Shown here piece by piece: positions 13,374 through 64,000 of a stretch of DNA of 64,000 nt. Both the position numbers and the translations under genes were made by a program. Where the stretch lies: assembly GCA_937924525.1 (NCBI GenBank), contig CALDSU010000003.1:62001-126000 (forward strand), read 5' to 3'. Origin of the DNA: an uncultured Bryobacteraceae bacterium. Its GTDB lineage: Bacteria > Acidobacteriota > Terriglobia > Bryobacterales > Bryobacteraceae. The notes beneath the pieces were generated by a model, which was given only the letters and a program-made list of their open reading frames with translations, was not told where the DNA came from and searched no databases. The first letter of the stretch is position 1. Every line of letters begins with the position of its first letter.

Positions 13374-13463
13374 GCTTCTTTTGTTACCACGAGCCGGGCC
13401 GCGACGAACTCCCCCGGACGCCACCCGCTCAAGCCGCGCGCGAACGGGTCGATAAGCCTGCGT

Positions 13464-14379: not shown

Positions 14380-14426
14380 GCCCGCCGCCCATCATACCGC
14401 GACCCCCTTGTTATGCTGGATGGTTT

Positions 14427-15674: not shown

Positions 15675-15715
15675 GCGGCGATGCGGGGTGGGGTTTTGCA
15701 AGGAGAGAGCGGACG

Positions 15716-48342: not shown

Positions 48343-48816
48343 CGGCGCGTGAGCCAGAAAATGTCCGCTTCCGTGAAAATCAACGCTGAGGGTTGGGGAT
48401 GGGGCCCGCCATTCCCTCCTGGTCACGGCTGTTTGTTTCCGTGGCCGAACTGACGGCGAGCCTCGCGCGGCTGCCAATGACGAGCCAGCCGGCGCCGCTA
48501 TCGCTGGACCGCGCCATAGCGCTTCAGGATCTTTACCGTCCGGCCAACGGGCAGCGCTTCGAGGCGGCGGCCGAGGTAGCCGGTCATGGAAACGGCTTGA
48601 AACAGGGAGTTGTACACCGCTTCTTCGACGGCCTCGATCGCCGCGAGAAACAGGGGCGACCTCGCGTCGTGGCCCAGCAGTTCGAGTTGCCGGCGGGACG
48701 CGCTGTGCCGGCCAGCGGCGGGGTTTCGGGCGCCGGGCGCGGGCGCCCACCCGCTTCTGGCCGCCCCCTCAGCAACTTGGTATACCAAAAGAATACGGCG
48801 TAACCACGGTGAAACG
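48343..48816. other. Intergenic region with a P1-peptidase relic
   Basis: This 474-base stretch between the peroxiredoxin and the PSD1 gene contains a minus-strand pseudogene fragment (48498-48695) described separately. The rest contains no gene I can support. It also holds the promoter of the PSD1 operon. Confidence 0.5.
48498..48695 (-). pseudogene. C-terminal relic of a DmpA/P1-family peptidase
   Basis: The last ~65 codons of a minus-strand frame read LELLGHDARSPLFLAAIEAV, EEAVYNSLFQAVSMTG and LEALPVGRTVKILKRYG. This matches the end of P1-family (S58, DmpA-type) aminopeptidases, where …SPLFxAxVEATEEAIYNSLFxATTxTG…ALP…VxxIL… is conserved. The remaining ~300 residues of a normal protein are absent; upstream in-frame sequence is not similar. 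It is a deletion remnant unlikely to be expressed. Confidence 0.6.
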
Positions 48817-51396
48817 ATGCAACGCGAGATTCTGACCGTCGCGCCAGCGTTGGCGCTGGCCCTGCTTGGCGCGGCCGCGGAGCTGCCGCCCCCGGCGCCC
48901 CGGCCGGTCGACTTTGCCAAGGAAGTAGGTCCGCTGTTGCGGAGCCGCTGCCAGGGATGCCATGGTGCGGCGCAACAGTTGAGCGGTCTGCGCCTGGACT
49001 CGCGCGCGGGCGTGCTCCAAGGCGGATACGCGGGACCGGCGATCGTGCCCGGCAAGAGCGAGCAGAGCCGCCTGATCCACCTGGTGGCGGAGCTGAAACC
49101 CGGCGTGGTCATGCCGCCGGCCGGCCCGCGTTTGACCGCTGAACAGATCGGCGTCTTGCGGGCGTGGATCGATCAGGGGGCGCAAATGCCCGAGCGGCCC
49201 GCGGCCCGCGCCGCCCAACCCGCGCCTCCGCCAAGCCACTGGTCGTTTGCGCCGCCCCGCAAGCCCACGCCGCCGCAGCCTCGCCAGGCCGCGTGGGTGC
49301 GGAACCCGATCGACGCGTTTGTGCTGGCCCGGCTGGAGGCGGAAGGGCTCACGCCGTCGCCGGAAGCTGAGCGCGCCACGCTCATCCGCCGTGTGAGTTT
49401 CGACCTGACCGGTCTGCCGCCCACGCCGCGCGAGGTGGCGGACTTTCTCGCCGACCCGCGGCCGGACGCATACGAGCGTCTGGTGGACCGCTTGCTGCAA
49501 TCCCCGCACTACGGCGAGCGCTGGGCCCGCCATTGGCTGGACCTAGGCCGTTACGCCGATAGCGACGGCTACGAGAAAGACCAGCCTCGTCCCCATGCCT
49601 GGCGCTACCGGCACTGGCTGATCGAGGCGTTGAATCGCGATCTGCCCTTCGATGAATTCACCATCCAAACCATGGCGGGCGATCTTTTGCCGCAGGCGGC
49701 GGCCGGCCCGCAGATCGCCACCGGCTTCCACCGCAACACGCTGACCAACCGGGAAGGCGGCACGAATCCCGAGCAGTTCCGCTTCGAGCAAACGGTGGAC
49801 CGCGCCGCCACGGTCGGCACCGTCTGGCTGGGATTGACGATGGGTTGCGCGCAGTGCCACGACCACAAATACGATCCCATCTCACAGCGCGACTTTTACC
49901 AGCTTTTCGCGTTCTTCAACACCGCCGACGAGACCTATTTGGACGCGCCGCTGCCGGGCGAGGAGGGGCCCTACTTCCGCGCGCTGCCCGAGTACCGCAG
50001 GCAGCGCGAAGCCCTCTTTCGCGAGTACCGCGTGCGTGAATTGCAGGCCGAGTGGGAGGCGGGACTCCGCGAGGCGATCGCCAACCCCGGCAAGTCGCAC
50101 GAGTGGGATTTCGCGCTCAACGTGGCGCGCGTGATGGGGGACTACGCCGACCGCCGGATCCTGGCGGGTCCCGAGCGCCGCACGCCGCGTGAGAACGAGG
50201 AGATGACGCGGCTTTTCATCCAATATTACGGAGGCGCCATCGTCACCAAGGAGCGCCTGAAGGAACTGCGCTGGGAAGAGTTCAAGGAGAAGTTCAAGAA
50301 GCTGGACGAGACGCTGCCCTGGTACAGCCAGGCGCCGGTGCTGTACCCGAGCCCGGAGGCGCGGAAGACCCATATTGCGATTCGTGGCGACTGGCGGGAG
50401 CCCGGCATTGAGGTGCAGCCCGCGACCCCCGCCTCCCTGCCGCCGCTGCAAGCCGCCGGTACGCCGACCCGGCTGGACTTGGCGCGCTGGCTGGTTTCCC
50501 GCGAGAATCCGCTGACGGCCCGCGTGACCGTGAACCGTTTCTGGGGCGAGTTCTTTGGGCGTGCGCTGGTGCGCACCACCGAGGACTTTGGCAGACAGGG
50601 CGAGCCGCCTTCCCATCCGGAACTGCTGGACTGGCTGGCCACCGAGTTCATGGACCAGGGCTGGAGCATGAAAGCCATGCACCGCCTGATGGTGACGTCA
50701 GCCACGTACCGGCAGTCCTCGGCGGTGCGGCCGGAAGTGCAGGCCAAGGACCCGGCGAACGTGCTGCTCGCGCGGCAGGCGCGTCTGCGCTTGCCCGCCG
50801 AATCCCTGCGAGACGCGGCGCTGGCGGCCAGCGGCTTGTTGAACCCGGCCATTGGCGGCAAGAGTATCCGGCCGCCCCAGCCGGCTGGCGTCACCGCCCT
50901 GGGGTACTCCGAACAGGGCAAGTGGGTGGAGACGGAAGGGCCGGAACGCTATCGCCGCGGTCTTTACATCCAATTTTTGCGCACCACCCCCTATCCCATG
51001 CTGATGAATTTCGACGCGCCGGATTCCAACGTGGCTTGCACGCGCCGCCAGCGGTCGAACACGCCGCTCCAGGCGCTCAACCTGCTGAACGACCCGGTGT
51101 TTTTTGAAGCCGCCCAGGGACTGGCCAACCGCCTGCTCCGGCAAGTGCGGGGACCGGTGACCGAGCGGATCAATTATGGCTTCCAGCTTGCCGTCGGCCG
51201 CGAGGCGACCGCGAGCGAGAAGGATAAGCTGGCGGGCTTCTTCGCCAAACAGAAGCAGGTATTCGCGCGCGACGCCGAAGCCGCGCGGCAGGTGTACCCG
51301 CTCGAGCGGGAGGACGCGGACCCCGCCGAAGCGGCGACCTGGGTGGCGTTGTCCCGCGCGCTGCTGAATCTCGATGAGTTCATGACCAGGGAGTAA
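48817..51396 (+). CDS. PSD1-type protein: cytochrome-c-like N-terminus with DUF1549 and DUF1553
   Basis: The 859-residue secreted protein has a signal peptide (residues 1-~22) and a small cytochrome-like domain with one haem motif (Cys45, Cys48, His49 in SRCQGCHG). DUF1549 follows (~165-375, DRLLQSPHYGERWARHWLDLGRY) and DUF1553 (~560-830, RVTVNRFWGEFFGRALVRTTEDFG). The architecture was first described in planctomycetes and is common in Solibacter, probably linked to carbohydrate or sulfate-ester breakdown; the function is unknown. I start at the ATG at 48817 with its clear signal. It overlaps the DUF1501 gene by one base (TAATG). Confidence 0.92.
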   Translation: MQREILTVAPALALALLGAAAELPPPAPRPVDFAKEVGPLLRSRCQGCHGAAQQLSGLRLDSRAGVLQGGYAGPAIVPGKSEQSRLIHLVAELKPGVVMPPAGPRLTAEQIGVLRAWIDQGAQMPERPAARAAQPAPPPSHWSFAPPRKPTPPQPRQAAWVRNPIDAFVLARLEAEGLTPSPEAERATLIRRVSFDLTGLPPTPREVADFLADPRPDAYERLVDRLLQSPHYGERWARHWLDLGRYADSDGYEKDQPRPHAWRYRHWLIEALNRDLPFDEFTIQTMAGDLLPQAAAGPQIATGFHRNTLTNREGGTNPEQFRFEQTVDRAATVGTVWLGLTMGCAQCHDHKYDPISQRDFYQLFAFFNTADETYLDAPLPGEEGPYFRALPEYRRQREALFREYRVRELQAEWEAGLREAIANPGKSHEWDFALNVARVMGDYADRRILAGPERRTPRENEEMTRLFIQYYGGAIVTKERLKELRWEEFKEKFKKLDETLPWYSQAPVLYPSPEARKTHIAIRGDWREPGIEVQPATPASLPPLQAAGTPTRLDLARWLVSRENPLTARVTVNRFWGEFFGRALVRTTEDFGRQGEPPSHPELLDWLATEFMDQGWSMKAMHRLMVTSATYRQSSAVRPEVQAKDPANVLLARQARLRLPAESLRDAALAASGLLNPAIGGKSIRPPQPAGVTALGYSEQGKWVETEGPERYRRGLYIQFLRTTPYPMLMNFDAPDSNVACTRRQRSNTPLQALNLLNDPVFFEAAQGLANRLLRQVRGPVTERINYGFQLAVGREATASEKDKLAGFFAKQKQVFARDAEAARQVYPLEREDADPAEAATWVALSRALLNLDEFMTRE

Positions 51397-52835
51397 TGGC
51401 GATGGAACTGCGCGAATTTTTGCGAATCCAATCGAGGCGCGATTTCTTCCGCCAGTCCACGGGACTGGGGACGATGGCGCTGGCGCACCTGTTGGCGTTG
51501 GAGGGTCGCACGGCCGACATGCCACGCACCGACCCGCTGGCCCCCAAACCGGCGCATTTTCCCGGCAAGGCGAAAGCCGTCATTTTGCTGTTTATGGAGG
51601 GCGCGCCGAGCCAGGTGGACCTGTTCGACCCCAAGCCGGGATTGCAGAAGTGGCACGGCACCGCGCTACCCGAGTCGATGACGAAGGATCTGAAACTGGC
51701 GTTCATCAAACCCACCGCCAAAGTGATGGCCAGCCCGCGGGTGTTCACGCGGCATGGCCAGTGCGGGATGGAACTCTCCGATTTTCTGCCGCACCTGGGC
51801 ACGGTGGCCGACGAGATCTGCCTGGTGCGGTCCATGGTGACGGATGCGTTCAACCATCACCCCGCGCAGTTGATGCTGATGAGCGGAACGATGCAGTTTG
51901 GCCGTCCGAGCATGGGCGCGTGGGTCACCTACGGCCTGGGCAGCGAATCGCAGAGCCTGCCCGGATTTGTCGTACTCAGTTCCGGCAAAGGCACCAGCGG
52001 AGGAGCGACGAACTTCACCAGCGGATTCTTGCCCTCCACCTACCAAGGCGTGCCGTTCCGCTCGAGCGGCGATCCGGTGCTGTACCTGTCCAGTCCCCCG
52101 GGCATCACGGCGGAAACCCAACGCAACACGCTGGACGTGCTCGGCCAGCTCAACGAAGAGCACCGCCTGCGCACGGGCGACTACGAAATCGCCAGCCGCC
52201 TGGCGGCGTACGAACTGGCGTTCCGCATGCAAGCGGCCGCGCCGGAACTGCTCGATTTCTCGAAAGAGTCGCCGCGCACGCTGGAGATGTATGGCATCCA
52301 CGACGAGAATAAAAAGGCGTTCGCCACCAATTGCCTGCTGGCGCGGCGCATGGTGGAACGCGGCGTGCGCTTTGTCCAACTGATGCACGCCAGTTGGGAC
52401 GATCACACGCAGCTCAATAAGAACCTGAAGAAGAACTGCGACATCACCGACCAGCCGGTGGCGGCGCTGATCAGAGACTTGAAACAGCGGGGTCTGCTCG
52501 ATTCCACCCTGGTGATCTGGGGCGGCGAGTTCGGCCGCACGCCCATGGTGGAGATCCGCAACACGAACGAAGAGGGCAATGAAGGGCGCGATCACCATCC
52601 GCTGGCGTTCACCATGTGGCTGGCCGGCGGCGGCATCAAGCCGGGCACGGTGGTGGGCAAGACCGACGACTTGGGCTTCCACGTCATTGAGGACAAGGTC
52701 CACGTCAACGATTTGCAGGCCACCATTCTGCATTGCCTGGGCTTTGACCATACCCGACTGACTTTCCGCCATCAGGGGCGCGATTTCCGCCTGACGGACA
52801 TCCACGGGCACGTGGTCAAGAAGATGCTCGCATAA
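51396..52835 (+). CDS. DUF1501 protein, sulfatase-fold-like, Tat-type leader
   Basis: The 479-residue protein begins SRRDFFRQSTGLGTMALAHL, a Tat-like leader, then shows the DUF1501 core: GAPSQVDLFDPKP, DAFNHHPAQLMLMSG, and near the end IWGGEFGRTPMVE with GRDHHPLAFTMWLAGGGI. DUF1501 shares the alkaline-phosphatase/sulfatase fold but no reaction is established. It is translated right after the PSD1 gene and is the usual partner of PSD1 proteins. A DHDPS-like gene follows after 13 bases. The second Met at 51402 is an alternative start. Confidence 0.93.
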   Translation: MAMELREFLRIQSRRDFFRQSTGLGTMALAHLLALEGRTADMPRTDPLAPKPAHFPGKAKAVILLFMEGAPSQVDLFDPKPGLQKWHGTALPESMTKDLKLAFIKPTAKVMASPRVFTRHGQCGMELSDFLPHLGTVADEICLVRSMVTDAFNHHPAQLMLMSGTMQFGRPSMGAWVTYGLGSESQSLPGFVVLSSGKGTSGGATNFTSGFLPSTYQGVPFRSSGDPVLYLSSPPGITAETQRNTLDVLGQLNEEHRLRTGDYEIASRLAAYELAFRMQAAAPELLDFSKESPRTLEMYGIHDENKKAFATNCLLARRMVERGVRFVQLMHASWDDHTQLNKNLKKNCDITDQPVAALIRDLKQRGLLDSTLVIWGGEFGRTPMVEIRNTNEEGNEGRDHHPLAFTMWLAGGGIKPGTVVGKTDDLGFHVIEDKVHVNDLQATILHCLGFDHTRLTFRHQGRDFRLTDIHGHVVKKMLA

Positions 52836-53850: not shown

Positions 53851-54666
53851 TCAGGGCCGGAGAAACATGGCGCTGTAGATGTGATCCCAGTCGGCTTCGG
53901 GTTGGGCCGTGGGCAGGTCGTCGACCAGCAGGCCGCCATCGGCCAGGGTCGGCCCGACCGCCGCGGGCGCCAACAAGCCCTGCAAACGTTCGAGTTCGGA
54001 CTGAAACCAGGCGGCGACTTCGGGTCCGTGCAGCAGGTGGCGTAAGTCGAGCTTGCCTTCCGGCCGGATGCGCAACAGCCAACCCTGCTCGCGCGAGCCG
54101 GTTTCCTCCACACGTCCGGCGATGGGAGCCAGGACGCGGGCGACGGCGCCTTCCCGCTGGACCTGCCACGCGATGGAGTGCGTGTCCAGCACCGCGCCCG
54201 GCGGCGGCAGTTCCACCGTGGCGGCGGGTCCGGCCAGGCGCTCGGCCAGCTCGTCCATGCCGACCAGCACCGTCCCGTCCGCTTGCGGCTCCACCCAGGC
54301 ATGGCCGCGGTGGTAGAAACGGTCCGGCGAATGATCGATGCCGTTCGGAACGGCGACCAACCCCTGCGCCTCGCGCGCGGCAAAGGCAGGGTGCTCGGCG
54401 CAGGTCCGGCAGTCGAACCCTCGCTCGCACAGCCGCCCGGGCGCGGTCCCGGTCAGCGCATGGCGGCACAGGCGTTCGGCCGGCGGGAGTTCTTCGAACT
54501 CCGCGTGCCAACGGATCGCGGCGGCGCGGCGTTCCCGCCAGGCCCGAAGATAGCGGATAGCCGCCGCCGTCAGGCTGGCGAGAATCACGACCAAAACCGT
54601 AAAGAAAGCGCCGAGAAAAATGACGTGCGCGACACTCCATTCAAAACCACTAACGCCCGGAAACAT
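53851..54666 (-). CDS. Membrane-anchored glycine-cleavage-H-like protein lacking the lipoyl lysine
   Basis: The 271-residue protein has one membrane helix (residues ~12-38), a four-Cys cluster at Cys67, Cys80, Cys86 and Cys89 (CRHALTG, then CERGFDCRTCAEH) and a GcvH-like hammerhead domain (~118-240, FYHRGHAWVEPQADG to LAPIAGRVEETG). The lipoyl Lys site aligns to Gly173-Ala174 in WQVQREGAVARV, so it should not carry lipoate. Similar Cys motifs occur, as I recall, in H-like proteins of anaerobic redox clusters. It is the last gene of the respiratory operon, overlapping the NrfD-like gene by 17 bases. A structural or cluster-binding role is inferred. Confidence 0.78.
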   Translation of the reverse strand: MFPGVSGFEWSVAHVIFLGAFFTVLVVILASLTAAAIRYLRAWRERRAAAIRWHAEFEELPPAERLCRHALTGTAPGRLCERGFDCRTCAEHPAFAAREAQGLVAVPNGIDHSPDRFYHRGHAWVEPQADGTVLVGMDELAERLAGPAATVELPPPGAVLDTHSIAWQVQREGAVARVLAPIAGRVEETGSREQGWLLRIRPEGKLDLRHLLHGPEVAAWFQSELERLQGLLAPAAVGPTLADGGLLVDDLPTAQPEADWDHIYSAMFLRP

Positions 54667-55969
54667 GGATCTCCTCCTGTTGCGGCCCTCTTGCGGTGGC
54701 GCGGGCCAGTTCTTTCTCCTGGGGGAATAACGTCAAATAGCGGAAGGAAAGCGAGTACACGATCACCGCGTACGCCACCACGCCCAGGAACGTGGCTACT
54801 TCCACCCAATTGGGAAGGTACGTCCGAAATTCGTCAAACGGCAAGGTGGGCAGCGCCAGCGTCTGGATCGTGAACACCAGGCGGTTGACCACGATGCCCG
54901 CGCAGGCCAGCGCCGCTCCGCACAGCAGCCAGCGGCGCGGCCCCTCCTCGCTGGCGCGGAGCAGGATCAAGGCCGGCAGCAAGCCCAGCACCACGATCTC
55001 CAGGAACAACACCCACGAGCCGAACGGGGCCCAGGCATAGAATTCCCACGGACGGAAGCCCGCCTGCTGCGAGGTCGAGTTCAGCCAGATCACCGTGTCC
55101 ACGCACTTGAAGAACACGTACGCGGTCAGCAGCACGCCGGAAGTGCGGGCCATCAACCGGTAGACCGAGCCCCGAACCAGGCGGTGACCGGAGATCTTCT
55201 CCGTCAGCCAGGTGGTCAGCATCAGAAAGGCGGGCCCGGCAGCGATCGCCGAAAGGATGAACAGGAAGAACGTGGCCGGCCAGATGCCGAAACCTTCCCG
55301 GTAGGCGAACGGGCGGCCATACATCACGCCGAACAGCCCGCCGAGCGAACCCTGGTGGAAGAACGACAGAAACGTGCCCACGCCCGCCAGCACCGGCATC
55401 ACCTTGTGAAGCTGGAATTCGAACACCAGGAACGACGGGATCTGCGACAGCTTCCTGTTCTTCAGGACCAGCGGCAGGTACTCGATGGACAGCACGATCA
55501 GGTAACAGGTGATGCAGAAAGTCACCTCGGCCAGCATCGAGTGGGTGTTGGGATGCCAGAAGGTGAACCAGGCGCGCAGCGGCTGGCCCACGTCCACCAT
55601 CAGCACCACCACCGCGCCGCTGTAGCAGAGGAAGCCCAGCACGACGGCGCTGCGGATGACGGCGCCCATCTCGTGCCAGCGCAGGATATAGAAAAGGAAG
55701 CCGCTGAAAAAGGCGCCCGCGCCCAGCGCGATGATGGCAAGGTCCAGGAAGATCCACAGCCCGAACACGAACCGGTGGTCCATGTTGGTGTGGTAAAGAC
55801 CGTCGCGCAGGCACATCCATCCGGCGTACAAGCCGAGGAGCAGCAGCGCCACCCAGGGTGAAAGCCAGCCCAGGAACTGCGCCGTCGAACAGCGCGAGAC
55901 GCCGCGCGGGATCCAGCCCTTGTCCAGAACGGCAGGCTCGGGGAAACGGGAGACGGCCATGTCAGCCAC
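54650..55969 (-). CDS. NrfD/PsrC-like quinone-interacting membrane subunit
   Basis: The 439-residue protein has about ten membrane helices and belongs to the NrfD/PsrC family (GAGAFFSGFLFYILRWHEMG, SFLVFEFQLHKVMPVLAGVG, FFHQGSLGGLFGVMYGRPFA). In Qrc, alternative complex III and polysulfide reductase this subunit binds the quinone and may take part in proton or charge transfer. It overlaps the ferredoxin-like gene by 8 bases and the H-like gene by 17, consistent with a tight complex. Confidence 0.9.
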   Translation of the reverse strand: MADMAVSRFPEPAVLDKGWIPRGVSRCSTAQFLGWLSPWVALLLLGLYAGWMCLRDGLYHTNMDHRFVFGLWIFLDLAIIALGAGAFFSGFLFYILRWHEMGAVIRSAVVLGFLCYSGAVVVLMVDVGQPLRAWFTFWHPNTHSMLAEVTFCITCYLIVLSIEYLPLVLKNRKLSQIPSFLVFEFQLHKVMPVLAGVGTFLSFFHQGSLGGLFGVMYGRPFAYREGFGIWPATFFLFILSAIAAGPAFLMLTTWLTEKISGHRLVRGSVYRLMARTSGVLLTAYVFFKCVDTVIWLNSTSQQAGFRPWEFYAWAPFGSWVLFLEIVVLGLLPALILLRASEEGPRRWLLCGAALACAGIVVNRLVFTIQTLALPTLPFDEFRTYLPNWVEVATFLGVVAYAVIVYSLSFRYLTLFPQEKELARATARGPQQEEIHVSGR

Positions 55970-56753
55970 GGGTCACCTCCTGATTGGGGGCCGCGCCGCC
56001 CTGGCGGGCCAGATCGCGCACCCAGCGGCGCCGGGTGCGGTAGTACACTTTGGGTCCGGTGCCCAGGCGTTCAAGCCAGCGGAACGACTCCGGCTGGGCG
56101 GCCAAGCGGCTGACCTCGCTGGCCTTGTCGGCCAGATCTCCGAACACGATCGCCTGCGTGGGGCAGGCCTCGACGCACGCCGGCACGTACTCGCCCGGAT
56201 TCAGGTCGCGGCGGCCCTCCGCCGCTGCCCGGTCTTCGGCGGCGTGCAGCCGGGAATGGCACAGGTCGCACTTTTCGACGACGCCGCGCATGCGCGGCGC
56301 GACGCCTGGATTCAGCGTAGTTTCCATCCCCGCCGGCCAGGCCGGGTCCCACCAGTTGAAGGTCCGGGCCTGATAGGGGCAGGCGGCCATGCAATAGCGG
56401 CAGCCCAGGCAGCGTTGCGGCATCTGCTCGACGATGCCCGTGAGCGGATCCACTTCCACCGCCTGCTGCGGGCAGACCGTTTCGCACGGCGTGCGGTCGC
56501 CGCACTGCATGCACAGGATGGGGATGAAGGCCGTGCGCCGCGAGTTCCGTTCCCGCACCGTAAAGACGCGCATCAGGTTGATCCCCTTGCGCTCGTCGGC
56601 TTCCGGAGGTCCCGAGGGCACGTTGTTTTCCACGGCGCACGCGGTCATGCACGCGCCGCAGCCCGTGCAGCGGTCCAGGTCGATGACCATGCCATAGCGC
56701 CGCTGCTTTTGGGGAGGCGGAGTCGGGATCTTCGCTTGGGCTGCCATGTTCAT
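55962..56753 (-). CDS. 16-Cys ferredoxin-like electron-transfer subunit
   Basis: The 263-residue protein has four [4Fe-4S]-type Cys sets: Cys29/32/35/39, Cys81/84/90/94, Cys115/118/121/125 and Cys162/165/193/197. The layout is that of DMSO-reductase-type FeS subunits and of QrcC. It has no signal; it could be carried out by the Tat partner. The start ATG is complementary to 56751-56753 and overlaps the stop of the molybdopterin-family gene by ATGA, the operon's normal junction. It passes electrons between the NrfD-like and molybdopterin-family subunits. Confidence 0.92.
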   Translation of the reverse strand: MNMAAQAKIPTPPPQKQRRYGMVIDLDRCTGCGACMTACAVENNVPSGPPEADERKGINLMRVFTVRERNSRRTAFIPILCMQCGDRTPCETVCPQQAVEVDPLTGIVEQMPQRCLGCRYCMAACPYQARTFNWWDPAWPAGMETTLNPGVAPRMRGVVEKCDLCHSRLHAAEDRAAAEGRRDLNPGEYVPACVEACPTQAIVFGDLADKASEVSRLAAQPESFRWLERLGTGPKVYYRTRRRWVRDLARQGGAAPNQEVTRG

Positions 56754-58759
56754 GCTCTCCTCAGTTGGGCCGGCGACCAGCGCCACGCGCCGTCCCTGCT
56801 TACCGGAAACAGCGCCAACGTCTCGGCGCCGCGATCGCCTTCGATCGCCACCTCGACGAAACCGTCCGCCATGCCGGGGTCCGTGCGGACCACCACCGCC
56901 GTTTCACCTTTGGGAGTGGCCAGCACGGCGCGTCCGCGATGTTTCAGACCCAGCGACTCGGCCGTGCGCGGGTGCACGCGAACTTCACCCGCGGCGGGCT
57001 CCAGATGCGACTCGCGCGTCAACTTGCTGGCCAAGGGCGGAGAAGGCATCGAGCCGGCGCCCCCGCGGCTTCCCGCCGGCGTCGCCAGCAGCGGGAATTG
57101 CGCCGTCGACGCAACCTGGGGAAGGTCCGGCAGGTCGGGGATGGCGGCGCGTAAGGGACGCGGGGCTGGTTCAGGATCATCGACCCAAACGGCGCCCTCC
57201 GTGAGCTGGTCCCAAAGGCCCTCGCCCACGGGGGAGGATTCGTCGGGCTCGGCCAGCGGTCGCACCACTCCTCGTCCCGCCTTCTCGATCGCCGCAGCCT
57301 TGGCTTGCAGCAGCGCATCCAGCGTTTGGTCTTCTGGCAAGCCGAAACGGTGCAGTACCGCCTCTGGGGAAATCGCCCCTTCCGGCATCGGGAACAGCGG
57401 CTTCGCCAGCGACCAGGAAGCCAAGCGGGAACCGGGCGTCTCGGGAATCTCTTCCCACGCCTCGAAAGGCGCCGGAACCGGCAGCGTCCAGGTGGCTTGG
57501 GCGGTCCAGGCGGTGCGGAACGCCGACAGGTGGATCGTGACGGCGTCCGGAGCCAGTTTGTCCTGGATCAGTTCGAGCGGCCAGGCGCACCCGGAGGAAG
57601 CCGAATCTACGATCAGCACGTCGATCGAACGGGCTGGCGCCCGGGCGAGCGTGGTCTCGGCAGGCAGACCGGGCGGGAGCGTGGGTTGCGGGACCGGGCG
57701 GCGCTCGACGATGCCGCCGGGCGTGCCCAGCGCGCCGAGCAGTGCGTTGAGCACGGACAGCGCCTGTTCCGTCGCCGCAGGAAGGGGACCGGCAACCGGA
57801 TCGCCGCCGCCGACTGCCACGGCCGGCCGGGCCGTGGCCAGCTCCCGGGCAAGCTCCTGAATCTGGGCGAGGGGTACGCCAGTCCGCGCGGCGGCTTCTT
57901 CCGGAGGGAACGCACTGAGGCTGGCGGGCAGCGCCAGCCCGGCGCCCGCGCCGTGCTCGCGGATGAGAATCGAAATCAACCCGCGCACCAGCGCGTGTTC
58001 CGAGTCCGGGCGAATGGCCATCCACCGGTCGGACAGCGCGGCGGTCCGGGAGTTGCCGGACGCGGCGTGCCAGAAGCGAATCTTCCGTTCCGGAGCGCCC
58101 CACAGGCGCAGCAGCCGTCCGGGCGCTCCCCAATGATCCAGTAGCGGCGCGCCGACGCTGAAGATCGTCCGGGAGCGTTCGAAATCGTAGCCGAGGGAAC
58201 GGGGCGGGCGGCCCGTCAGTTCCGCCACGGCGCGCAGGGTGCCCTCTTCGGGCGCCGGCAGCGTCACATACTGCGCGCGCGGAAAACCGGCGAGAAATTG
58301 GCGGTACAGCACGGACACCATGCGTCCAGGCCGCTGGTCCAAAACCGCAACGACGGCGCCGGAACGGCGAGCCCGCTCGACCGCCGCCGCGGCGTCTTCG
58401 AGCGCTTCCGCCAGCGGCGCGGCCTTGCCCCGGTGGAGAGCGGTGCGCAGGCGGCTCTGGTGAAACGGCAGCTGATGCCCGGCGAAACCGCGGGCGCACA
58501 GCGCGCCTCCCGGCGTGCTGGACACCGCGAACGGCGCCTCGTTGACGCGGCGCACCTTCATGCCGCAACCCGCCGGGCAGAGCGGGCACACCGTGTGGGT
58601 GATCGTGATCTCGCCGCGGGGGTGTTTCGGAAGCCACGACCAGTTCTGCGTCCAGATGGAAACGTCGTCCAGCAGTTTCCACGGCACGGGGGTGAACACC
58701 ATCCCCACGCCCGCGCCAGCGGCGGTCATCAACAAGAGATCTCTTCGCGTGGCAGACAT
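56750..58759 (-). CDS. Molybdopterin-oxidoreductase-family subunit (QrcB-like) with Tat signal
   Basis: The 669-residue protein has a Tat leader (SATRRDLLLMTAAGAGVGM) and an N-terminal [4Fe-4S] site at Cys58, Cys61, Cys65 and Cys88 (TVCPLCPAGCGMKV, ALCARGF). A C-terminal MopB dinucleotide-binding-like domain ends VRTDPGMADGFVEVAIEGD. Its length matches QrcB, which keeps the fold but not the molybdenum cofactor, and the sequence is divergent. I start at the ATG complementary to 58757-58759 after AGGAAG. It lies between the cytochrome and FeS genes, as in Qrc. Confidence 0.85.
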   Translation of the reverse strand: MSATRRDLLLMTAAGAGVGMVFTPVPWKLLDDVSIWTQNWSWLPKHPRGEITITHTVCPLCPAGCGMKVRRVNEAPFAVSSTPGGALCARGFAGHQLPFHQSRLRTALHRGKAAPLAEALEDAAAAVERARRSGAVVAVLDQRPGRMVSVLYRQFLAGFPRAQYVTLPAPEEGTLRAVAELTGRPPRSLGYDFERSRTIFSVGAPLLDHWGAPGRLLRLWGAPERKIRFWHAASGNSRTAALSDRWMAIRPDSEHALVRGLISILIREHGAGAGLALPASLSAFPPEEAAARTGVPLAQIQELARELATARPAVAVGGGDPVAGPLPAATEQALSVLNALLGALGTPGGIVERRPVPQPTLPPGLPAETTLARAPARSIDVLIVDSASSGCAWPLELIQDKLAPDAVTIHLSAFRTAWTAQATWTLPVPAPFEAWEEIPETPGSRLASWSLAKPLFPMPEGAISPEAVLHRFGLPEDQTLDALLQAKAAAIEKAGRGVVRPLAEPDESSPVGEGLWDQLTEGAVWVDDPEPAPRPLRAAIPDLPDLPQVASTAQFPLLATPAGSRGGAGSMPSPPLASKLTRESHLEPAAGEVRVHPRTAESLGLKHRGRAVLATPKGETAVVVRTDPGMADGFVEVAIEGDRGAETLALFPVSRDGAWRWSPAQLRRA

Positions 58760-58773
58760 GGTTCTTCCTCGGT

Positions 58774-59358
58774 TCACTTATGGCAGCCCAGGCAGCCCGC
58801 CACCACCGAGCGCTGGCGGTGACAATCTTCGCAGTCGCTCATCTTCATGCCTTCGCCGGGTTTCCAGCCGATCCGCAACATGCGGGGGCCCCAGATATCC
58901 CGGCTGTAGCCGCTGATCCGGTTCCGCTGGAAATCCTTCAGCCGTGCGCTCTCGCCCACCGCCCCGTGGCAATCCTCGCAGGCCATCTCGCCCACCTTAA
59001 CGTGGCGGGCGTGCGAGAAACGCACGTTGTCCGGCTGGCGGGAATAGACCAGCCAGGGCACCTCCCGATGGGGCGTCACGAACGCTTCGATGAAGTGTTT
59101 CTCCTGGGGAGTCTCCCCTGCCGGTTCGGTATGACAGGGCAGACAGGTCTCCAGGCGGGGAATGCCGGCGAAAGACCCGTCGTCGCGAAACGCGTGACAA
59201 TCGGAGCAACTCATGCCGGCTTCGCCGGTATGTACTTGGTGACTGAATTGCGCCGGTTGGGGAATCCGTTCGTACAACACCGCCGGAAACACCAGCCAGC
59301 CGAGGGCCAGCATTCCCGCCAGCCCCGCGAGAAACGAAAAAACGGATCGCAGGTTCAT
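58774..59358 (-). CDS. Membrane-anchored pentahaem c-type cytochrome
   Basis: The 194-residue protein has an N-terminal anchor helix (residues ~5-30) and five CXXCH motifs at residues 51, 72, 127, 176 and 189 (first Cys of each). His residues in FSHQVHTG and FSHARHVK are probable distal ligands. ActA of alternative complex III is also a pentahaem, QrcA has six haems, so it fits either group. The ATG complementary to 59356-59358 shares a base with the upstream stop; a GTG at 59361 is possible. It would be the electron outlet or inlet of the complex. Confidence 0.9.
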   Translation of the reverse strand: MNLRSVFSFLAGLAGMLALGWLVFPAVLYERIPQPAQFSHQVHTGEAGMSCSDCHAFRDDGSFAGIPRLETCLPCHTEPAGETPQEKHFIEAFVTPHREVPWLVYSRQPDNVRFSHARHVKVGEMACEDCHGAVGESARLKDFQRNRISGYSRDIWGPRMLRIGWKPGEGMKMSDCEDCHRQRSVVAGCLGCHK

Positions 59359-60275
59359 CACTCGTGCATCCAGCCCCGTTGCGGGGAAAAGAATTCGTGA
59401 AGAACTTCCAGGATTTCGTCGCGGGACAGCGCGCTGGCGAATCCCGGCGCGAGCGAACCTCCGTCGCCCGCTAGTGCAAACACTCCCGCGTGGCGCGTTC
59501 CCGCCAGCCGGTGCACGCGTTCATTCAACCGCTGCACTTCGGCGCGCATCCAGGCGGCGGCGCGCGCGCCGCGCATCAGGCCGGCATCCCGTCCGTTGTC
59601 CGCGGGCAACTCCCAGCCTTCGAAAAGCCACCCGGTGCGATAGCAATCCCGCAACAGCCGCCCGGGATCCGCGCGCAAATACAGGTTCGGCCGCTCCAAC
59701 AGAACAGTCTTGGGAAACGTAACCGGCCAGTCGACTCCGTGGGCCGAGATCACCGCGCTCGGCCGGCACGTGCCCCGTACCGTAATGAAGTGCACCCGGT
59801 CCACCTGGGCCAGGACGCTCGCCAACAAACCGTCCACGCCGATGTGGCACATCCCGTCCTCTTCCACATCGAGCCAGAGGTGATTCGGCGTATAAGACAG
59901 CCTCTCCGGCAGGTCGATTCCATCGATATTCGCGACTGCATCCGGCCGGTCGAGCGAAGGGCGGGCCAGCGACAGGTACATCTCGCAGTAGCGGTGAGCG
60001 CTCGAACCGCAGCGCGTAATCTGCGACTGGCTGAAAGGGATGTACTTCGGCGTCTGGGCCGCGGCGCAATACTGGACGAGAGTCTCATCCAGCAGCGGGC
60101 AACGCCCCGTGGGCGACGGGCTCACGTTCCGCTCCGCCAGCACCGGGCAGGTGGCGTGAGCGGCCGTCAGACATTTGTCGGTAGCTGCGGCCGTCGCCTC
60201 GCAGACAATTCCCCGCCGCGCAGGCATCGCGCGGCAGTTCCTCGTCCGGGTTTCTTTCAAGAAAGGGCAGCCCAT
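59358..60275 (-). CDS. Cys-rich glycine-cleavage-H-like protein with a duplicated four-Cys motif
   Basis: The 305-residue protein has no signal or membrane helix. Residues 3-105 contain two copies of a motif: Cys3-Cys14-Cys35-Cys43 and Cys59-Cys70-Cys89-Cys97, each with CP(F/L)L-x-ET and a later C-x3-AH-x2-C. A GcvH-like domain follows (~128-225, HLWLDVEEDG, ending TGWLFEGW) without Lys at the lipoyl position. The rest (~225-305) is helical. It is second in the operon and has a different N-terminal half from the H-like protein at the other end. Metal binding by the Cys repeats is inferred. Confidence 0.78.
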   Translation of the reverse strand: MGCPFLKETRTRNCRAMPARRGIVCEATAAATDKCLTAAHATCPVLAERNVSPSPTGRCPLLDETLVQYCAAAQTPKYIPFSQSQITRCGSSAHRYCEMYLSLARPSLDRPDAVANIDGIDLPERLSYTPNHLWLDVEEDGMCHIGVDGLLASVLAQVDRVHFITVRGTCRPSAVISAHGVDWPVTFPKTVLLERPNLYLRADPGRLLRDCYRTGWLFEGWELPADNGRDAGLMRGARAAAWMRAEVQRLNERVHRLAGTRHAGVFALAGDGGSLAPGFASALSRDEILEVLHEFFSPQRGWMHE

Positions 60276-60291
60276 GACCAGCCTCGCTCCC

Positions 60292-60594
60292 CTAGCGGGT
60301 CTTGTTTGGCTTGGAAGCCTCGGCGCTGTTCGGCGTGTCGGCCGGCTCGCCGCCGTCGGCCATGGTCAGGCCCAGTTCGGGAACATGCAACGTGTGCGGG
60401 TCACTCCTCCCAAAGAACTGCCCGACTTCGCGGTCGATCTCCATGCCGCGCGCATGCAACTGCCAGCGCCGGCGGATTTCGACCAGGAAGCTACCGCCCA
60501 GCGCGGCCAGGCAGGCCAGCATCACCAACCCTAAGGCGACATTCGTCAGATTCAACCAAATCGTTTGCGGATCGCTCCAATCGATGCCAAACAT
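60292..60594 (-). CDS. Small membrane protein at the head of the respiratory operon
   Basis: The 100-residue protein has one transmembrane helix (residues ~12-38) and a charged tail (IRRRWQLHARGMEIDREVG). The ATG complementary to 60592-60594 follows the strong ribosome-binding site AAAAGGAG. No family is recognised. Its place as first gene and the 16-base gap to the next gene suggest it is a small subunit or assembly factor of the complex. Confidence 0.7.
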   Translation of the reverse strand: MFGIDWSDPQTIWLNLTNVALGLVMLACLAALGGSFLVEIRRRWQLHARGMEIDREVGQFFGRSDPHTLHVPELGLTMADGGEPADTPNSAEASKPNKTR

Positions 60595-61014
60595 GGCGTT
60601 CTCCTTTTCTGGGGGATTTCTTCGTGTGCGGGACAATCCCCAACCTGCCTACAGCACGCGGGTCGCCAATCGGTGAAGACATCTTAAAAGAGGCGCCTAA
60701 AAGATTGATAAAAATGAGTTTCAGATCCGCGCGGAGCGCCGCAGGAGTCGCTCGCCACATGCCGTCCGTCTGAGATTCCCACACGGCTCGTCTGGAAATC
60801 CGGCACGAGCCCCCCCGACGAGGCAGTTCCTGCCTGCGGGGAGGTCGCGCAGGCGATTTGCTCCCGCTCGAAATTGGGCCTGCCGGATCGCGCTTCTACT
60901 GCTGCCGGGCGACCCGAATCGGAGATCTCGGACGAGATTTCGGCACGCGATGACGGGGTACGCTGCGGTTGCGCTCAGCGTTTTCCGTTAGAAAATCCCC
61001 GGCCCCTCAGCGCT
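60595..61014. other. Intergenic region upstream of the respiratory operon
   Basis: This 420-base stretch lies between the TIGR03437-type gene and the respiratory operon, both on the minus strand. It contains hairpin arms GGCTCGT (60784-60790) with ACGAGCC (60804-60810) and AGGCAG-TTC-CTGCCT near 60826-60840, neither followed by a T run. I see no gene. The operon promoter should be here. Confidence 0.45.
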
Positions 61015-64000
61015 TCAGGGAAGCCGGCAGACAAACGACACGCGAACCTCGGGGACGACGGTGTCGGTCCGGTCCCACTCCGTTCGGGTATACGTATCGC
61101 GCTGGCGCTCCGATCCGTCGGCGGCCAGCCAGACGCGGGTAAAGCGGATATTCGAGACGTGGTTGTTCGCCTTTTCCCGGTACGCGCGGAAATCGAAGAT
61201 GGCGCACCCGCCGCCGCCATCCCGAAAGCCGGCGGCTTCCAGGTTATTCACGTTGTACGAGATTTCCGTCCACTGGAGGCCGCTGCGAGTGGTCGTTTTC
61301 GAGCGAAACGTCCCGCTGACAATCTTGGCCAGATCCGGACTGATTTGTCCCTTCATGGAGAACTCGACGGTATCGCCGCCGGAAGTCGGGCACTTTCCGG
61401 AGAAATCGAAGTGGGCGCCGTTCCAGGCGGTCTTCGCAGAGCACGCTCCAAAGCGGAGGGTGGGCGTGCGGAACGAGTTTCCGTCCTCGGTAAAGCGGCG
61501 AGGCTGGGTTCCGCTGGAGACATAATGCTCGCCGATCACGTCCGCCACCACGCCGATCGTCGGATGGATCTGGCCGAGCTTGTCCTGTCCCTCGACGCGA
61601 ACCTCCACGGACCTACGCAACTCCGGCCACCCCGGGCCGGCCGCGCTGCCGCCCAGCAGCAGGTCCCAACGCGTCTGCCCGGCGGCGCGCCCCGTGAGCG
61701 TCACGGTGGCGCCCCGCGTCAACTCAGCCACGCGCGGTTCCGCAATCGCCATGTCGAGACATTCGCCACGGCCGGTCAGATCCGGCCAGAAACGCTGCTC
61801 CAGCCGGCCGCTCACGCCGATCACCCGGAGACCGCTCAGCGACTGTCCCACCCGCAGACTGATCGGCGACTCGGAAACGCCCTGGATTTGAAAGCCCTCG
61901 ATTTCGTTCATGAAATCGTTGGTGACCAGAACCCCCTCCGTGGTTTCCCCGTTGCGTAGCCGGATCCGCAGTTCCTGGATCCCGACGCGGCAGGTGGCCA
62001 CCCATCGCACCACCGGAGAACTGCTGCCCGGGGATCGCTGGAAGCGATCGAGGATGATGTCAAGCCTGCTCTCGTCGCTCTCCACCAGGTAGGTGACATC
62101 CACGGGCAGGTAGAACACTCCGTCCCGCACCTGCCCGCCAACTTTTTGAATGAACGGGATCGCCGGAGAATCGGCGTCGAACGCGATCTCTCCCGCCACC
62201 TGCAGCGAGATGGTTTGATCCAGCACCGCCGGCGCCGTTAGCCGGATTTGCCCGACCGGCGTCCCGTAGCTGAACCGCGCGGGGTCGCCGGCTTCCGGTT
62301 CCACCTCCACCCCGGCCGGATTACTGAACAGAATGGCAGTCCCTTGGTAGAACCGGGGATTCACCTTTACCTTCGCCAGCTCAAGCTGCTCCAGCAACGC
62401 GCGCACTTCGTTGAGGGCGCGAGCCAGTTCCAGGTTGTAGCCCAATTGCTCGAGCGATGCCTGAATCATGTCCGCCTGGCTATCCAGGTGAGGGATCGGC
62501 TCGGTGGCAATCTGTATCAATCCGACGCCGACTTGCTTCCACTTCAGCAGCCCGATCCCGGTGAATCCGTTCTTCCAGGATTCCTTCACCGCCGCAATCC
62601 CGTTGTCGAGCGTATCGTAGATCTGGTAGATATTCGCAACCAAATCGCCGAACACCGGGATCTTGCCGACCGCTCCGAAGTAGATTGCCAAGAGCAGTTT
62701 TTCCTCGTCGACATGCCCCTGCCGGAGCGTCTCGTTGATCAACTGGTTCAACCGTCCGAGGTCGACGACGCCGGCAAAGCGGGCGGAAGCGGAGGCTTTG
62801 GCGACGCCGCCGGTCTCGAAGATCTCCCGATTCAACAGCTCGTCGGGGGTGATGTTCAGGATCTTCCACGCGCCGCCCTCTTTGCGCAGATACGCCAGCA
62901 AGCCGCACGTCAGCGCATGCCGCTCGACGCGCGTGGTTACGGTGTAGCTGACCACCGCGCGCACCACGGCCAGCGTGCCCTTGTCGCCCGGCGCGGTGGC
63001 CAGGTGGGTGAACCGGAAGTCGGAGAAGGTCGCGTTCCGCCGCACGGTCTCGAAGATTTTCGCCGCCGCCTGCTTGCCCGCCTCCGAATAGCCTTCCTGC
63101 GCCGCGTGACCCAGCAACCCCGTCATGTCGCCGCGCGCCTGCGCCTCCAGCGCCGCCCGCACCACCTCTTCCGGCTTGCCGCCCGCCGGCGGCCCCACAT
63201 AAGCGGTCACCGCGCTCTGCGACGCCTGCCCGCCGCACCGGATGACCACCGCGTGCGCCCCTTCGGCCAAACCCGCCGGCGCTTGCAGGTTCACCTGGTA
63301 CAAGCCCATAAACCCCGGCGCCAGCCCCGCGAAGTGCACCACCGCGTCCCGGCCCCCGATCGTCGCCGTCACCGTCTCAGTCACCCGCTGGAGCGCACCC
63401 AGCGCCCCGCCATCGCCCCCCGGACGACCCGCCGTCGCCTCCGGCGTCACCGCCCCCAGCCCCGTCAGGTACAGCACCAGGTACTCGTTCGGCTGCGCCG
63501 GCCGCTCCCGGCTCACCAGCCCGTAGTCCGCCGCGTGCAGCAGGATCGCCTCCCCCTTGCCGTCCTGCGTCCGGGTAAACAGCCGCGGCGCCCGCGCCCG
63601 CACCGGCACGGTCACCGCCTGGCTCACGCCCCCCGCGTTCCGCACCCGCACGCTCACCGACGCCCCTTGCAAGCCGAACGGCAACTGCGCGTTGATCTGT
63701 CCGGCGGAAACAAAAAACAGGGGCGCGGGCAGCGTCCGCCCGCCGTCCACTACCTCCACCGACACACCGTCCAGCGTGGTGGGCAGCGGCGCGCCCGACG
63801 CCTGCCGCGTCGCCCCCGCCAGGTTGCTTCCAAACAGCGAAATCATCGCCCCCGGCGCCAGCGCCGCCGTGTAGTCCGCCGTGTTCACCACCCCGCCGGA
63901 GGCCAGCGTCGGCGCCAGCCCCGTGCTCCCGGGCAGCGAAATCGTGTACCGGATCTCCGCCAGCGTCTGGTTCTTCCACTTGATCAGCACCCGCCAGACG
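61015..64000 (-). CDS. Large protein with a Solibacter-type TIGR03437-like domain (partial, N-terminus outside)
   Basis: The frame enters from the right window edge (…RVLIKWKNQTLAE) and runs ~994 codons to the stop at 61015. Residues ~20-235 of the visible part match the Solibacter C-terminal domain: SISLFGSNLAGA-like core MISLFGSNLAG, PLPTTLDGVSVEV, PLFFVSAGQINAQLPFGL and YLVLYLTGLGAVTPE. After it come about 750 further residues without a family I recognise: a helical part (~320-520), then beta-rich segments with VSGRLEQRF and TLTGRAAGQ. The domain is usually last in its protein, so this position is unusual. Nothing suggests an enzyme; a secreted or surface protein is likely. Confidence 0.8.
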   Translation of the reverse strand, partial: VWRVLIKWKNQTLAEIRYTISLPGSTGLAPTLASGGVVNTADYTAALAPGAMISLFGSNLAGATRQASGAPLPTTLDGVSVEVVDGGRTLPAPLFFVSAGQINAQLPFGLQGASVSVRVRNAGGVSQAVTVPVRARAPRLFTRTQDGKGEAILLHAADYGLVSRERPAQPNEYLVLYLTGLGAVTPEATAGRPGGDGGALGALQRVTETVTATIGGRDAVVHFAGLAPGFMGLYQVNLQAPAGLAEGAHAVVIRCGGQASQSAVTAYVGPPAGGKPEEVVRAALEAQARGDMTGLLGHAAQEGYSEAGKQAAAKIFETVRRNATFSDFRFTHLATAPGDKGTLAVVRAVVSYTVTTRVERHALTCGLLAYLRKEGGAWKILNITPDELLNREIFETGGVAKASASARFAGVVDLGRLNQLINETLRQGHVDEEKLLLAIYFGAVGKIPVFGDLVANIYQIYDTLDNGIAAVKESWKNGFTGIGLLKWKQVGVGLIQIATEPIPHLDSQADMIQASLEQLGYNLELARALNEVRALLEQLELAKVKVNPRFYQGTAILFSNPAGVEVEPEAGDPARFSYGTPVGQIRLTAPAVLDQTISLQVAGEIAFDADSPAIPFIQKVGGQVRDGVFYLPVDVTYLVESDESRLDIILDRFQRSPGSSSPVVRWVATCRVGIQELRIRLRNGETTEGVLVTNDFMNEIEGFQIQGVSESPISLRVGQSLSGLRVIGVSGRLEQRFWPDLTGRGECLDMAIAEPRVAELTRGATVTLTGRAAGQTRWDLLLGGSAAGPGWPELRRSVEVRVEGQDKLGQIHPTIGVVADVIGEHYVSSGTQPRRFTEDGNSFRTPTLRFGACSAKTAWNGAHFDFSGKCPTSGGDTVEFSMKGQISPDLAKIVSGTFRSKTTTRSGLQWTEISYNVNNLEAAGFRDGGGGCAIFDFRAYREKANNHVSNIRFTRVWLAADGSERQRDTYTRTEWDRTDTVVPEVRVSFVCRLP

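What the first reader, a model, noticed from the sequence alone, without database searches (positions are those of the whole stretch)
53851..60594. Qrc/alternative-complex-III-like respiratory operon with two lipoate-less H-protein relatives
Seven tightly packed genes on one strand (overlaps of 1-17 bases, gaps of at most 16) encode a small membrane protein, a Cys-rich GcvH-like protein, a pentahaem cytochrome, a Tat-exported molybdopterin-family protein, a 16-Cys FeS protein, an NrfD-like subunit and a membrane-anchored GcvH-like protein. The four middle genes keep the order of QrcABCD, while the haem number fits ActA. The two H-like proteins are fixed at both ends of the core and lack the lipoyl Lys, which suggests they are dedicated structural or metal-binding subunits. 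This may be an undescribed menaquinone:cytochrome oxidoreductase of soil acidobacteria.
Basis: partly seen in the sequence, partly recalled or inferred. Interest (0 to 1): 0.8.

Follow-up and report, generated by a model that had tools for sequence, protein, structure and literature searches.

The report
Qrc respiratory operon with H-protein-fold companions
A soil bacterium carries a variant of a known respiratory membrane complex (Qrc) whose operon nearly always brings along three extra proteins, two of them shaped like the glycine-cleavage H protein but unable to carry its lipoyl arm; they probably sit on the inner side of the membrane, and their relatives recur beside similar complexes and sensor kinases, pointing to an undescribed way of attaching or controlling such complexes.

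Summary
The seven-gene operon is real. Its core is not a new oxidoreductase type: it belongs with QrcABCD (QrcA above the NCBIfam cut-off, QrcD just below), not alternative complex III. It is a distinct Qrc variant: five haems (62 of 62), FeS cysteines kept in QrcB (67 of 70; the other three lack that stretch), and three extra genes, g1, Hc and Hm. Among 80 relatives from Acidobacteriota and six other lineages, all seven genes are present in 46 of 48 loci with enough flank; Hm in 77 of 77. Hc and Hm models have the H-protein fold and lack the lipoyl lysine. Topology puts both, and the tail of g1, in the cytoplasm, opposite QrcABC. The operon has a conserved sigma-54 promoter (42 of 56). Lipoate-less H-like proteins are a wider family: 71 of 104 hits in the phylum lie within 5 kb of an NrfD gene, often with a c-haem histidine kinase, sigma-54 regulator and archaemetzincin; in ten of ten loci chosen by ORF length the H domain is fused to a receiver domain after NrfC-NrfD-kinase. 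Best reading: H-like proteins are cytoplasmic docking/regulatory subunits of NrfD-type quinone modules. Function is inferred, not shown.

The parts
60653..60668 (-). sigma-54 (-24/-12) promoter-like site TGGCGACCCGCGTGCT, 74 bases upstream of the g1 start
   Evidence: site at -130..-30 with score >=16.5 in 42 of 56 upstream regions against a resampled control mean of 2.0 (max 7 in 200 runs); 23 of 315 other ORFs of the same loci also pass; rpoN present in the genome
60292..60594 (-). g1: 100 aa, one N-terminal TM helix, tail with invariant LGxTMADGG motif, predicted cytoplasmic
   Evidence: motif positions 55-56 of 56; C-side positive in 57 of 57; no Pfam match up to E 0.1
59358..60275 (-). 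Hc: no TM helix, two four-Cys repeats (C3,C14,C35,C43 / C59,C70,C89,C97) followed by a lipoate-less H-protein fold (about 120-245) and a DGG motif
58774..59361 (-). QrcA: pentahaem cytochrome c with N-terminal hydrophobic segment
   Evidence: NCBIfam NF041781 223.4 bits, cut-off 180; five CxxCH in 62 of 62 near-complete homologues
56750..58777 (-). QrcB: molybdopterin-family-like subunit with Tat-like signal, keeps four Fe4S4 Cys (C64,C67,C71,C94)
   Evidence: NF041783 229.8 bits, cut-off 440, not reached; Cys set in 67 of 70 homologues, the other three lacking that stretch
55962..56786 (-). QrcC: FeS subunit with 16 conserved Cys; likely start ATG at 56753
   Evidence: NF041782 317.5 bits, cut-off 400, not reached; Cys 75-76 of 76; starts
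54650..55969 (-). QrcD: NrfD/PsrC-type integral membrane quinone subunit
   Evidence: NF041784 557.8 bits, cut-off 570; key residues conserved 82 of 82, one of them 77 of 82
53851..54666 (-). Hm: N-terminal TM helix, four-Cys motif C-x12-C-x5-C-x2-C, lipoate-less H-protein fold (about 110-229), ADGG motif; H domain predicted cytoplasmic
   Evidence: Cys 78 of 78; 79 of 79

Best explanation
The operon encodes a Qrc-type, electrogenic periplasmic cytochrome c:menaquinone oxidoreductase that carries a dedicated cytoplasmic attachment. QrcA takes electrons from periplasmic cytochromes, QrcC (perhaps with an extra cluster in QrcB) passes them to menaquinone at QrcD, and protons are taken from the cytoplasm. 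g1, Hc and Hm are subunits or tightly bound partners on the cytoplasmic face: Hm and g1 are anchored by one helix each, Hc is soluble and may bind metal or FeS through eight cysteines. The H fold is used here as a protein-docking module, not as a lipoyl carrier. Its likely job is to regulate or tether the NrfD-type subunit, connecting it to a c-haem histidine kinase and sigma-54 regulator that also set transcription of the operon. Shown by sequence: gene content, synteny, absent lipoyl Lys, cysteines, promoter conservation, genetic linkage to signalling genes. Predicted by model: the H fold. From the literature on N. vulgaris Qrc: the reaction and proton uptake. Inferred: cytoplasmic location (positive-inside rule and receiver-domain fusions), physical binding to QrcD, regulatory role, metal binding, that this kinase and regulator act on this promoter.
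For: NCBIfam: QrcA above cut-off, QrcD at 98% of cut-off; in the phylum the other NrfD-family hits (E up to 1e-20) have 176 bits or less against 557-588 for five genomes. QrcD positions matching N. vulgaris D70, Y110, D120, S138, Y150, R358 conserved in 82 of 82 and E413 in 77 of 82 (mapped by numbering offset; residues from PMC13059093 and PMC8076601). Hm in 77 of 77, g1 and Hc each in 47 of 49 loci with enough flank. H fold: Hc Z 16.8, rmsd 1.9, 124 aligned; Hm Z 14.0, rmsd 1.9, 118 aligned. Lys at the lipoyl column in 2 of 54 Hm, 1 of 49 Hc, 0 of 14 rows of A2, two of which are Hm. Topology: K/R excess on the C-side in 79 of 79 Hm and 57 of 57 g1; QrcB Tat-like in 62 of 66. H-like family linked to NrfD: 71 of 104 hits within 5 kb. 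REC-H fusions directly after NrfC-NrfD-HK in 10 of 10 loci chosen by ORF length (Pfam on one). HK, RR and M54 all within the fetched locus in 24 of 46 qrc loci with 6 kb downstream of qrcD; 61 of 74 distinct HKs have a CxxCH, at one place in the sensor in 63 of 64 motifs counted. Sigma-54 promoter 42 of 56, rpoN present. The same genome has a complete H-NrfC-NrfD-HK-RR-M54 cluster on contig C17.
Against: No physical interaction is shown, and complex prediction was not possible. N. vulgaris Qrc works as four subunits without H-like proteins (PMC13059093), so they are not needed for the reaction. 18 of 46 qrc loci with 6 kb downstream have none of HK, RR and M54, and the window has none in its 64 kb. 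In the kinase modules 32 of 39 distinct NrfC proteins have no Tat-like motif, so there FeS and H proteins would share the cytoplasm, whereas in Qrc they would lie on opposite sides: one common contact would have to be on NrfD/QrcD itself. Of 13 regions covering 15 of the 29 H-like hits far from NrfD, six show no recognised partner. QrcB and QrcC of the window miss their NCBIfam cut-offs. The sigma-54 sites were scored with weights of my own.
Confidence: 0.55

Rival explanations
1. Maturation factors: the cytoplasmic H-like proteins are dedicated chaperones or FeS donors that load and proof-read QrcB/QrcC before Tat export, as NarJ/DmsD-type proteins do for related enzymes (recalled; NarJ family seen in a listing only).
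For: Hc and Hm are predicted cytoplasmic and Cys-rich; QrcB has a Tat-like signal and QrcC none of its own; strict linkage to the operon.
Against: H-like proteins also accompany NrfCD modules whose NrfC mostly has no Tat-like motif and exist as receiver-domain fusions, which a chaperone role does not explain; Hm and g1 keep a membrane anchor.
Confidence: 0.25
2. Purely structural or metal-binding subunits of the complex, with no signalling role.
For: Invariant Cys sets and fixed places in the operon; 18 of 46 loci without kinase genes nearby.
Against: Does not explain the REC-H fusions and the recurrent kinase/regulator linkage.
Confidence: 0.2
3. The complex runs mainly in reverse, as a menaquinol:cytochrome c oxidoreductase (ACIII-like function) feeding periplasmic or extracellular acceptors. 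This concerns direction and can hold together with the best explanation of the H-like proteins.
For: dsrA above cut-off in only 2 of 13 qrc-bearing genomes tested, so sulfate reduction is not the usual context; reversibility of Qrc is discussed in PMC6303296 (passages).
Against: Core subunits and residues are Qrc, not Act; direction cannot be read from sequence.
Confidence: 0.3
4. The H-like proteins carry a lipoyl or sulfur group at another residue, as LbpA-type lipoate-binding proteins do in sulfur oxidation (recalled).
For: Same fold; a Lys within two positions of the site in 33 of 54 Hm and 5 of 14 A2 rows.
Against: Lys at the site itself in only 2 of 54 Hm and 1 of 49 Hc; within two positions in only 1 of 49 Hc; window residues G and H.
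Confidence: 0.03

Closest known systems
QrcABCD of Nitratidesulfovibrio (Desulfovibrio) vulgaris and other Desulfobacterota
   Same: Four core subunits in the same order, Mo-family-like QrcB on the periplasmic side, NrfD-type QrcD with the same key residues
   Different: Five haems, not six; QrcB keeps four FeS-type cysteines (N. vulgaris QrcB is described as having no redox cofactor, PMC13059093); three extra genes; sigma-54-type promoter; other phyla
qrcABCD of the acidobacterial MAG CO124 (PMC10564751)
   Same: It is a member: locus L099 has all seven genes
   Different: The main text names only qrcABCD; 'gcvh' and 'h-protein' occur there 0 times (supplements not seen)
Unnamed novel protein family beside qrcABCD in Blakebacterota/Orphanbacterota (PMC9727166)
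   Same: A conserved extra gene next to qrcABCD in bacteria that largely lack DsrABC
   Different: The family is not identified in the section and passages read; it may be g1 or Hc. No H-like proteins, topology, promoter or kinase link seen there
Alternative complex III (ActABCDEF)
   Same: Penta/hexahaem cytochrome, cofactor-less Mo-family-like part, NrfD-type subunit
   Different: No ActB-type fusion, no second NrfD gene and no further Act genes in the operon; Qrc models fit
Glycine cleavage H protein (GcvH)
   Same: Predicted fold (Z 14-17)
   Different: No lipoyl Lys, extra Cys domains, membrane anchor in Hm; far below the NCBIfam GcvH cut-off

Membership tests
QrcABCD | QrcA equivalog model | tested here: met
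   223.4 bits, cut-off 180
QrcABCD | QrcD equivalog model | tested here: inconclusive
   557.8 bits, cut-off 570 for the window; 3 of 5 genomes with QrcD-type hits in the phylum pass, a fourth has 569.7
QrcABCD | QrcB and QrcC equivalog models | tested here: not met
   229.8 of 440 and 317.5 of 400 bits; still the best model for each
QrcABCD | Gene order A-B-C-D | tested here: met
QrcABCD | QrcD residues for menaquinone binding and proton path | tested here: met
   82 of 82 for six positions, 77 of 82 for the seventh, mapped by numbering offset, not by alignment with the N. vulgaris protein
QrcABCD | Six haems c in QrcA | tested here: not met
   Five CxxCH in 62 of 62; PMC6303296 speaks of penta/hexahaem QrcA/ActA, so this feature may not be strict
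QrcABCD | QrcB without redox cofactor | not testable with these tools
   Four FeS-type Cys in 67 of 70, the rest lacking that stretch; cluster content needs protein
QrcABCD | Cytochrome c3:menaquinone activity | not testable with these tools
   Needs enzyme assay
Alternative complex III | Mo-family and FeS parts fused (ActB), plus ActC/ActF and ActD/ActE genes | tested here: not met
   QrcB and QrcC are separate genes; one NrfD gene among the seven
GcvH | Lipoyl lysine | tested here: not met
   G in Hm, H in Hc
GcvH | NCBIfam GcvH cut-off | tested here: not met
   Hm 38.0 and Hc 20.5 bits, cut-off 117
GcvH | H-protein fold | tested here: met
   (predicted models)

The most novel reading that the evidence does not exclude
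Lipoate-less H-fold proteins are a general cytoplasmic adaptor of NrfD-type quinone modules: a c-haem histidine kinase reads periplasmic redox state and phosphorylates a membrane-anchored receiver-H protein (or partners of free H proteins), whose H domain docks on the NrfCD or Qrc module and sets its activity. Respiratory modules would thus be controlled directly, and not only through transcription, by a phosphorelay that uses a retired lipoyl carrier as its output domain. A speculative parallel is pyruvate dehydrogenase kinase, a GHKL kinase that binds lipoyl domains (recalled).
Probability: 0.3. Interest if true: 0.88.

Novelty: new variant of a known kind. Interest (0 to 1): 0.7.

Why it matters
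Qrc is the one NrfD-type complex for which electrogenic, proton-coupled menaquinone reduction is said to have been shown experimentally (PMC13059093, introduction), and it is mostly treated as a feature of Desulfobacterota sulfate reducers. Here a seven-gene form is spread over several other phyla, without dsrA above cut-off in 11 of the 13 genomes tested, which widens where this energy-conserving step is expected. The H-like companions give NrfD-type complexes a cytoplasmic side that I did not find in the papers seen, and the NrfC-NrfD-kinase-receiver-H clusters make it possible to test directly whether respiratory quinone modules are controlled by phosphorelay.

Tried and rejected
ACIII membership was rejected on NCBIfam scores and gene content. 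A lipoyl or sulfur-carrier role was set aside on the missing lysine. Sulfate reduction as the usual context was rejected: dsrA above cut-off in 2 of 13 genomes, not in the window genome (20.4 bits against 392.85). The electron donor in the window genome was not settled: NiFe-hydrogenase-family hits match only in part, and an FDH-like gene with an in-frame TGA stands by an ORF that looks like its FeS subunit. A QrcD tree of 82 rows (81 QrcD, one outgroup) mixes phyla (Acidobacteriota 5 changes, Bacteroidota 10, Ignavibacteriota 10; bootstrap not settled, outgroup branch very long): this may mean transfer, but it says nothing about Desulfobacterota, as none were fetched. PDB sequence search with QrcD gave nothing at 0.001. 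The structure searches reported no match for the Cys domains of Hc and Hm, which were not searched alone; that is no evidence that they are new. I scanned no promoter control beyond those; the own-genome C17 module itself showed no convincing sigma-54 site (best 15.0).

Dropped rows and limits: searches used loci with enough flank (49 upstream, 77 downstream, 48 both, of 80) and near-complete rows in alignments. L063 (QrcB truncated, no QrcA/Hc/g1) and L119 (Myxococcota, no g1/Hc) are the two failures of 48; outside the 49, L123 has g1 but no Hc. The KSB1 locus L049 is cut by its contig. L036/L078, L037/L066 and L039/L105 are the same contigs seen through two tools. One search lists 104 hits of 111 bits or more; I entered 103 and missed one (G031, 115.1 bits, H-domain part only, no NrfD hit); counts here are given out of 104 with it added as a miss. 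The cut is by eye and not sharp: Hc proteins of qrc loci score about 97-109 bits, overlapping with ordinary GcvH. Distances are between first coordinates, and hits on other contigs count as far although the genomes are fragmented.
Full report
OBSERVATION. The seven ORFs lie on the minus strand at 60594-53851 with close to the spacing described. QrcA has five CxxCH, QrcB a Tat-like RR and an Fe4S4 domain, QrcC 16 Fe4S4-type cysteines, QrcD is NrfD family, and two proteins are H-protein-like without the lipoyl Lys. The QrcC start is more likely the ATG at 56753, which gives a 4-base overlap with qrcB.

WHAT THE CORE IS. On NCBIfam the best models are QrcA 223.4 bits (cut-off 180, met), QrcB 229.8 (440), QrcC 317.5 (400) and QrcD 557.8 (570). 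In 297 genomes of the phylum five have QrcD-type hits of 557-588 bits; the other NrfD-family hits listed (E up to 1e-20) have 176 bits or less. Positions that correspond by numbering to the N. vulgaris residues tested in PMC13059093 (introduction and first part of the results read) are conserved: D70, Y110, D120, S138, Y150 and R358 in 82 of 82, E413 in 77 of 82. The mapping uses a constant offset, not an alignment with the N. vulgaris protein. The complex is therefore Qrc-like and should be able to carry out the Qrc reaction. It differs from the described complex by five haems in 62 of 62 QrcA against six in the table of PMC8076601 (passages), and by four Fe4S4-type cysteines in QrcB in 67 of 70 sequences, the other three lacking that stretch, where N. 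vulgaris QrcB is described as having no redox cofactor (PMC13059093).

DISTRIBUTION AND SYNTENY. A scan of GTDB species genomes with QrcD gave 121 relatives, of which the best 80 were kept: by record title Acidobacteriota, Bacteroidota, Ignavibacteriota, Kryptoniota, KSB1, Eisenbacteria and Myxococcota. The short patterns used may favour this clade; no Desulfobacterota appear among the 80, and the other 41 were not shown. With profiles built here, Hm follows qrcD in 77 of 77 loci with 700 bases downstream; g1 and Hc precede qrcA in 47 of 49 loci with 5.6 kb upstream; all seven genes are present in 46 of 48 loci with both flanks. The failures are L063, which looks truncated or rearranged, and L119 (Myxococcota). 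Outside that set L123 has g1 but no Hc. L099 is MAG CO124, in which qrcABCD was reported to be transcribed without oxygen (PMC10564751, passages). A dsrA gene above cut-off is found in 2 of 13 qrc genomes tested, CO124 and a Kryptoniota genome.

THE EXTRA PROTEINS. Hc has eight near-invariant cysteines in two repeats of four (54-57 of 57); Hm has four (78 of 78) with spacing C-x12-C-x5-C-x2-C; g1 ends in a nearly invariant LGxTMADGG stretch, and ADGG or DGG recurs in Hm and Hc. Predicted structures are confident (mean pLDDT 90.9 for Hm; 89.0 for Hc) and match H proteins: Hc Z 16.8, rmsd 1.9, 124 aligned, residues 120-245; Hm Z 14.0, rmsd 1.9, 118 aligned, residues 110-229. Lys is at the lipoyl column in 2 of 54 Hm and 1 of 49 Hc. 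g1 and Hm have one N-terminal helix with the positive charges after it in 57 of 57 and 79 of 79; Hc has no such helix in 54; QrcB has a Tat-like motif in 62 of 66, QrcC no signal of its own in 75. By the positive-inside rule the H domains face the cytoplasm, opposite QrcABC.

REGULATION. Upstream of g1 a -24/-12 site scores at or above my threshold between -130 and -30 in 42 of 56 regions; resampled sequences give 2.0 on average and at most 7 in 200 runs; other ORFs of the same loci pass in 23 of 315. The window site is at 60668-60653. rpoN is present in the genome (408.7 bits, cut-off 277.35). Of 46 qrc loci with 6 kb downstream of qrcD, 24 hold all three of a histidine kinase, a sigma-54 response regulator and an archaemetzincin somewhere in the fetched stretch; 18 hold none, and the 64-kb window has none. 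Of 76 such kinases from all loci fetched, 74 are distinct and 61 of these have a CxxCH; 63 of the 64 motifs lie at one place in the periplasmic sensor.

A WIDER FAMILY. H-like proteins without lipoyl Lys also stand next to HybB-like NrfCD genes (0 of 14 rows of alignment A2 have the Lys; two of the 14 are Hm of qrc), in the window genome too: H-NrfC-NrfD-HK-RR-M54 on contig C17. A profile of A2 over 297 genomes of the phylum gives 104 hits of 111 bits or more in 77 genomes; 71 lie within 5 kb and 75 within 10 kb of an NrfD hit, and 69 of the 77 genomes have such an NrfD hit (which held 103 of the 104; the one missed counts as far). The cut at 111 bits was chosen by eye and is not sharp. Of 13 regions covering 15 of the 29 far hits, four have NrfC or NrfD of a weaker-scoring type beside them, three have HK/RR genes without NrfCD, six have no recognised partner. 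In ten of ten loci chosen because of their ORF length or earlier view (L047, L048, L201-L208) the order is NrfC-NrfD-HK-[TM-receiver-H]; Pfam confirms receiver plus GCV_H in the one tested. A receiver domain is cytoplasmic, which supports the topology. Of 39 distinct NrfC proteins of such modules 32 have no Tat-like motif.

MECHANISM. I commit to a Qrc complex with a cytoplasmic H-fold attachment that tethers or regulates the quinone module; 0.55 for this as a whole, with the Qrc identity of the core near certain and the regulatory role at about 0.35-0.4. Maturation factors are the strongest rival.

NOVELTY. Searches of the held library: GcvH/NrfD/menaquinone (15 of 44 listed), glycine cleavage with NrfD and cytochrome (2 of 2 listed; passages of one read), qrcA/qrcD/Ignavibacteri (6 of 6), glycine cleavage H/response regulator/NrfD (15 of 30 listed), archaemetzincin with histidine kinase and cytochrome (none), Qrc terms (33 of 33 listed), archaemetzincin/NrfD/sigma-54/two-component (15 of 323 listed), GcvH-like with quinone and cytochrome (none). 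In what was listed or read I saw no description of the H-like/NrfD association; long lists were seen only in part, and most subscription papers are not held. The nearest prior observation is an unnamed novel family beside qrcABCD in Blakebacterota and Orphanbacterota that largely lack DsrABC (PMC9727166, section 7 and passages), so extra genes beside qrc, and qrc outside sulfate reducers, are not wholly new.

Noticed in passing
G000 contig C17, about 10556-16816 (L040): Complete H-like/NrfC/NrfD/c-haem histidine kinase/sigma-54 regulator/archaemetzincin cluster in the window's own genome.
   Followed up: yes
L047, L048, L201-L208: Four-gene clusters NrfC-NrfD-histidine kinase-[TM-receiver-H domain]; about 27 of the 104 H-like hits look like this form by their matched range and ORF length, ten were checked.
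   Followed up: partly
L109 and L120: Two Hm-like genes in tandem after qrcD.
   Followed up: no
L159, L160: H-like genes without NrfCD or kinase, near ORFs that look, by eye from their first residues, like CoA-transferase and 2-oxoacid:ferredoxin oxidoreductase genes.
   Followed up: no
window 48610-52835, + strand: PSCyt1/DUF1549/DUF1553 gene followed by a DUF1501 gene, overlapping by one base.
   Followed up: no
window 61015-63990, - strand: 991 aa protein upstream of the operon without a Pfam match at 1e-5.
   Followed up: no
G000 contig C12, about 85646-87280 (L183, L185): Molybdopterin-family gene, formate-dehydrogenase-like by eye, with one in-frame TGA, followed by an ORF that looks like an FeS subunit: a possible selenoprotein.
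   Followed up: no
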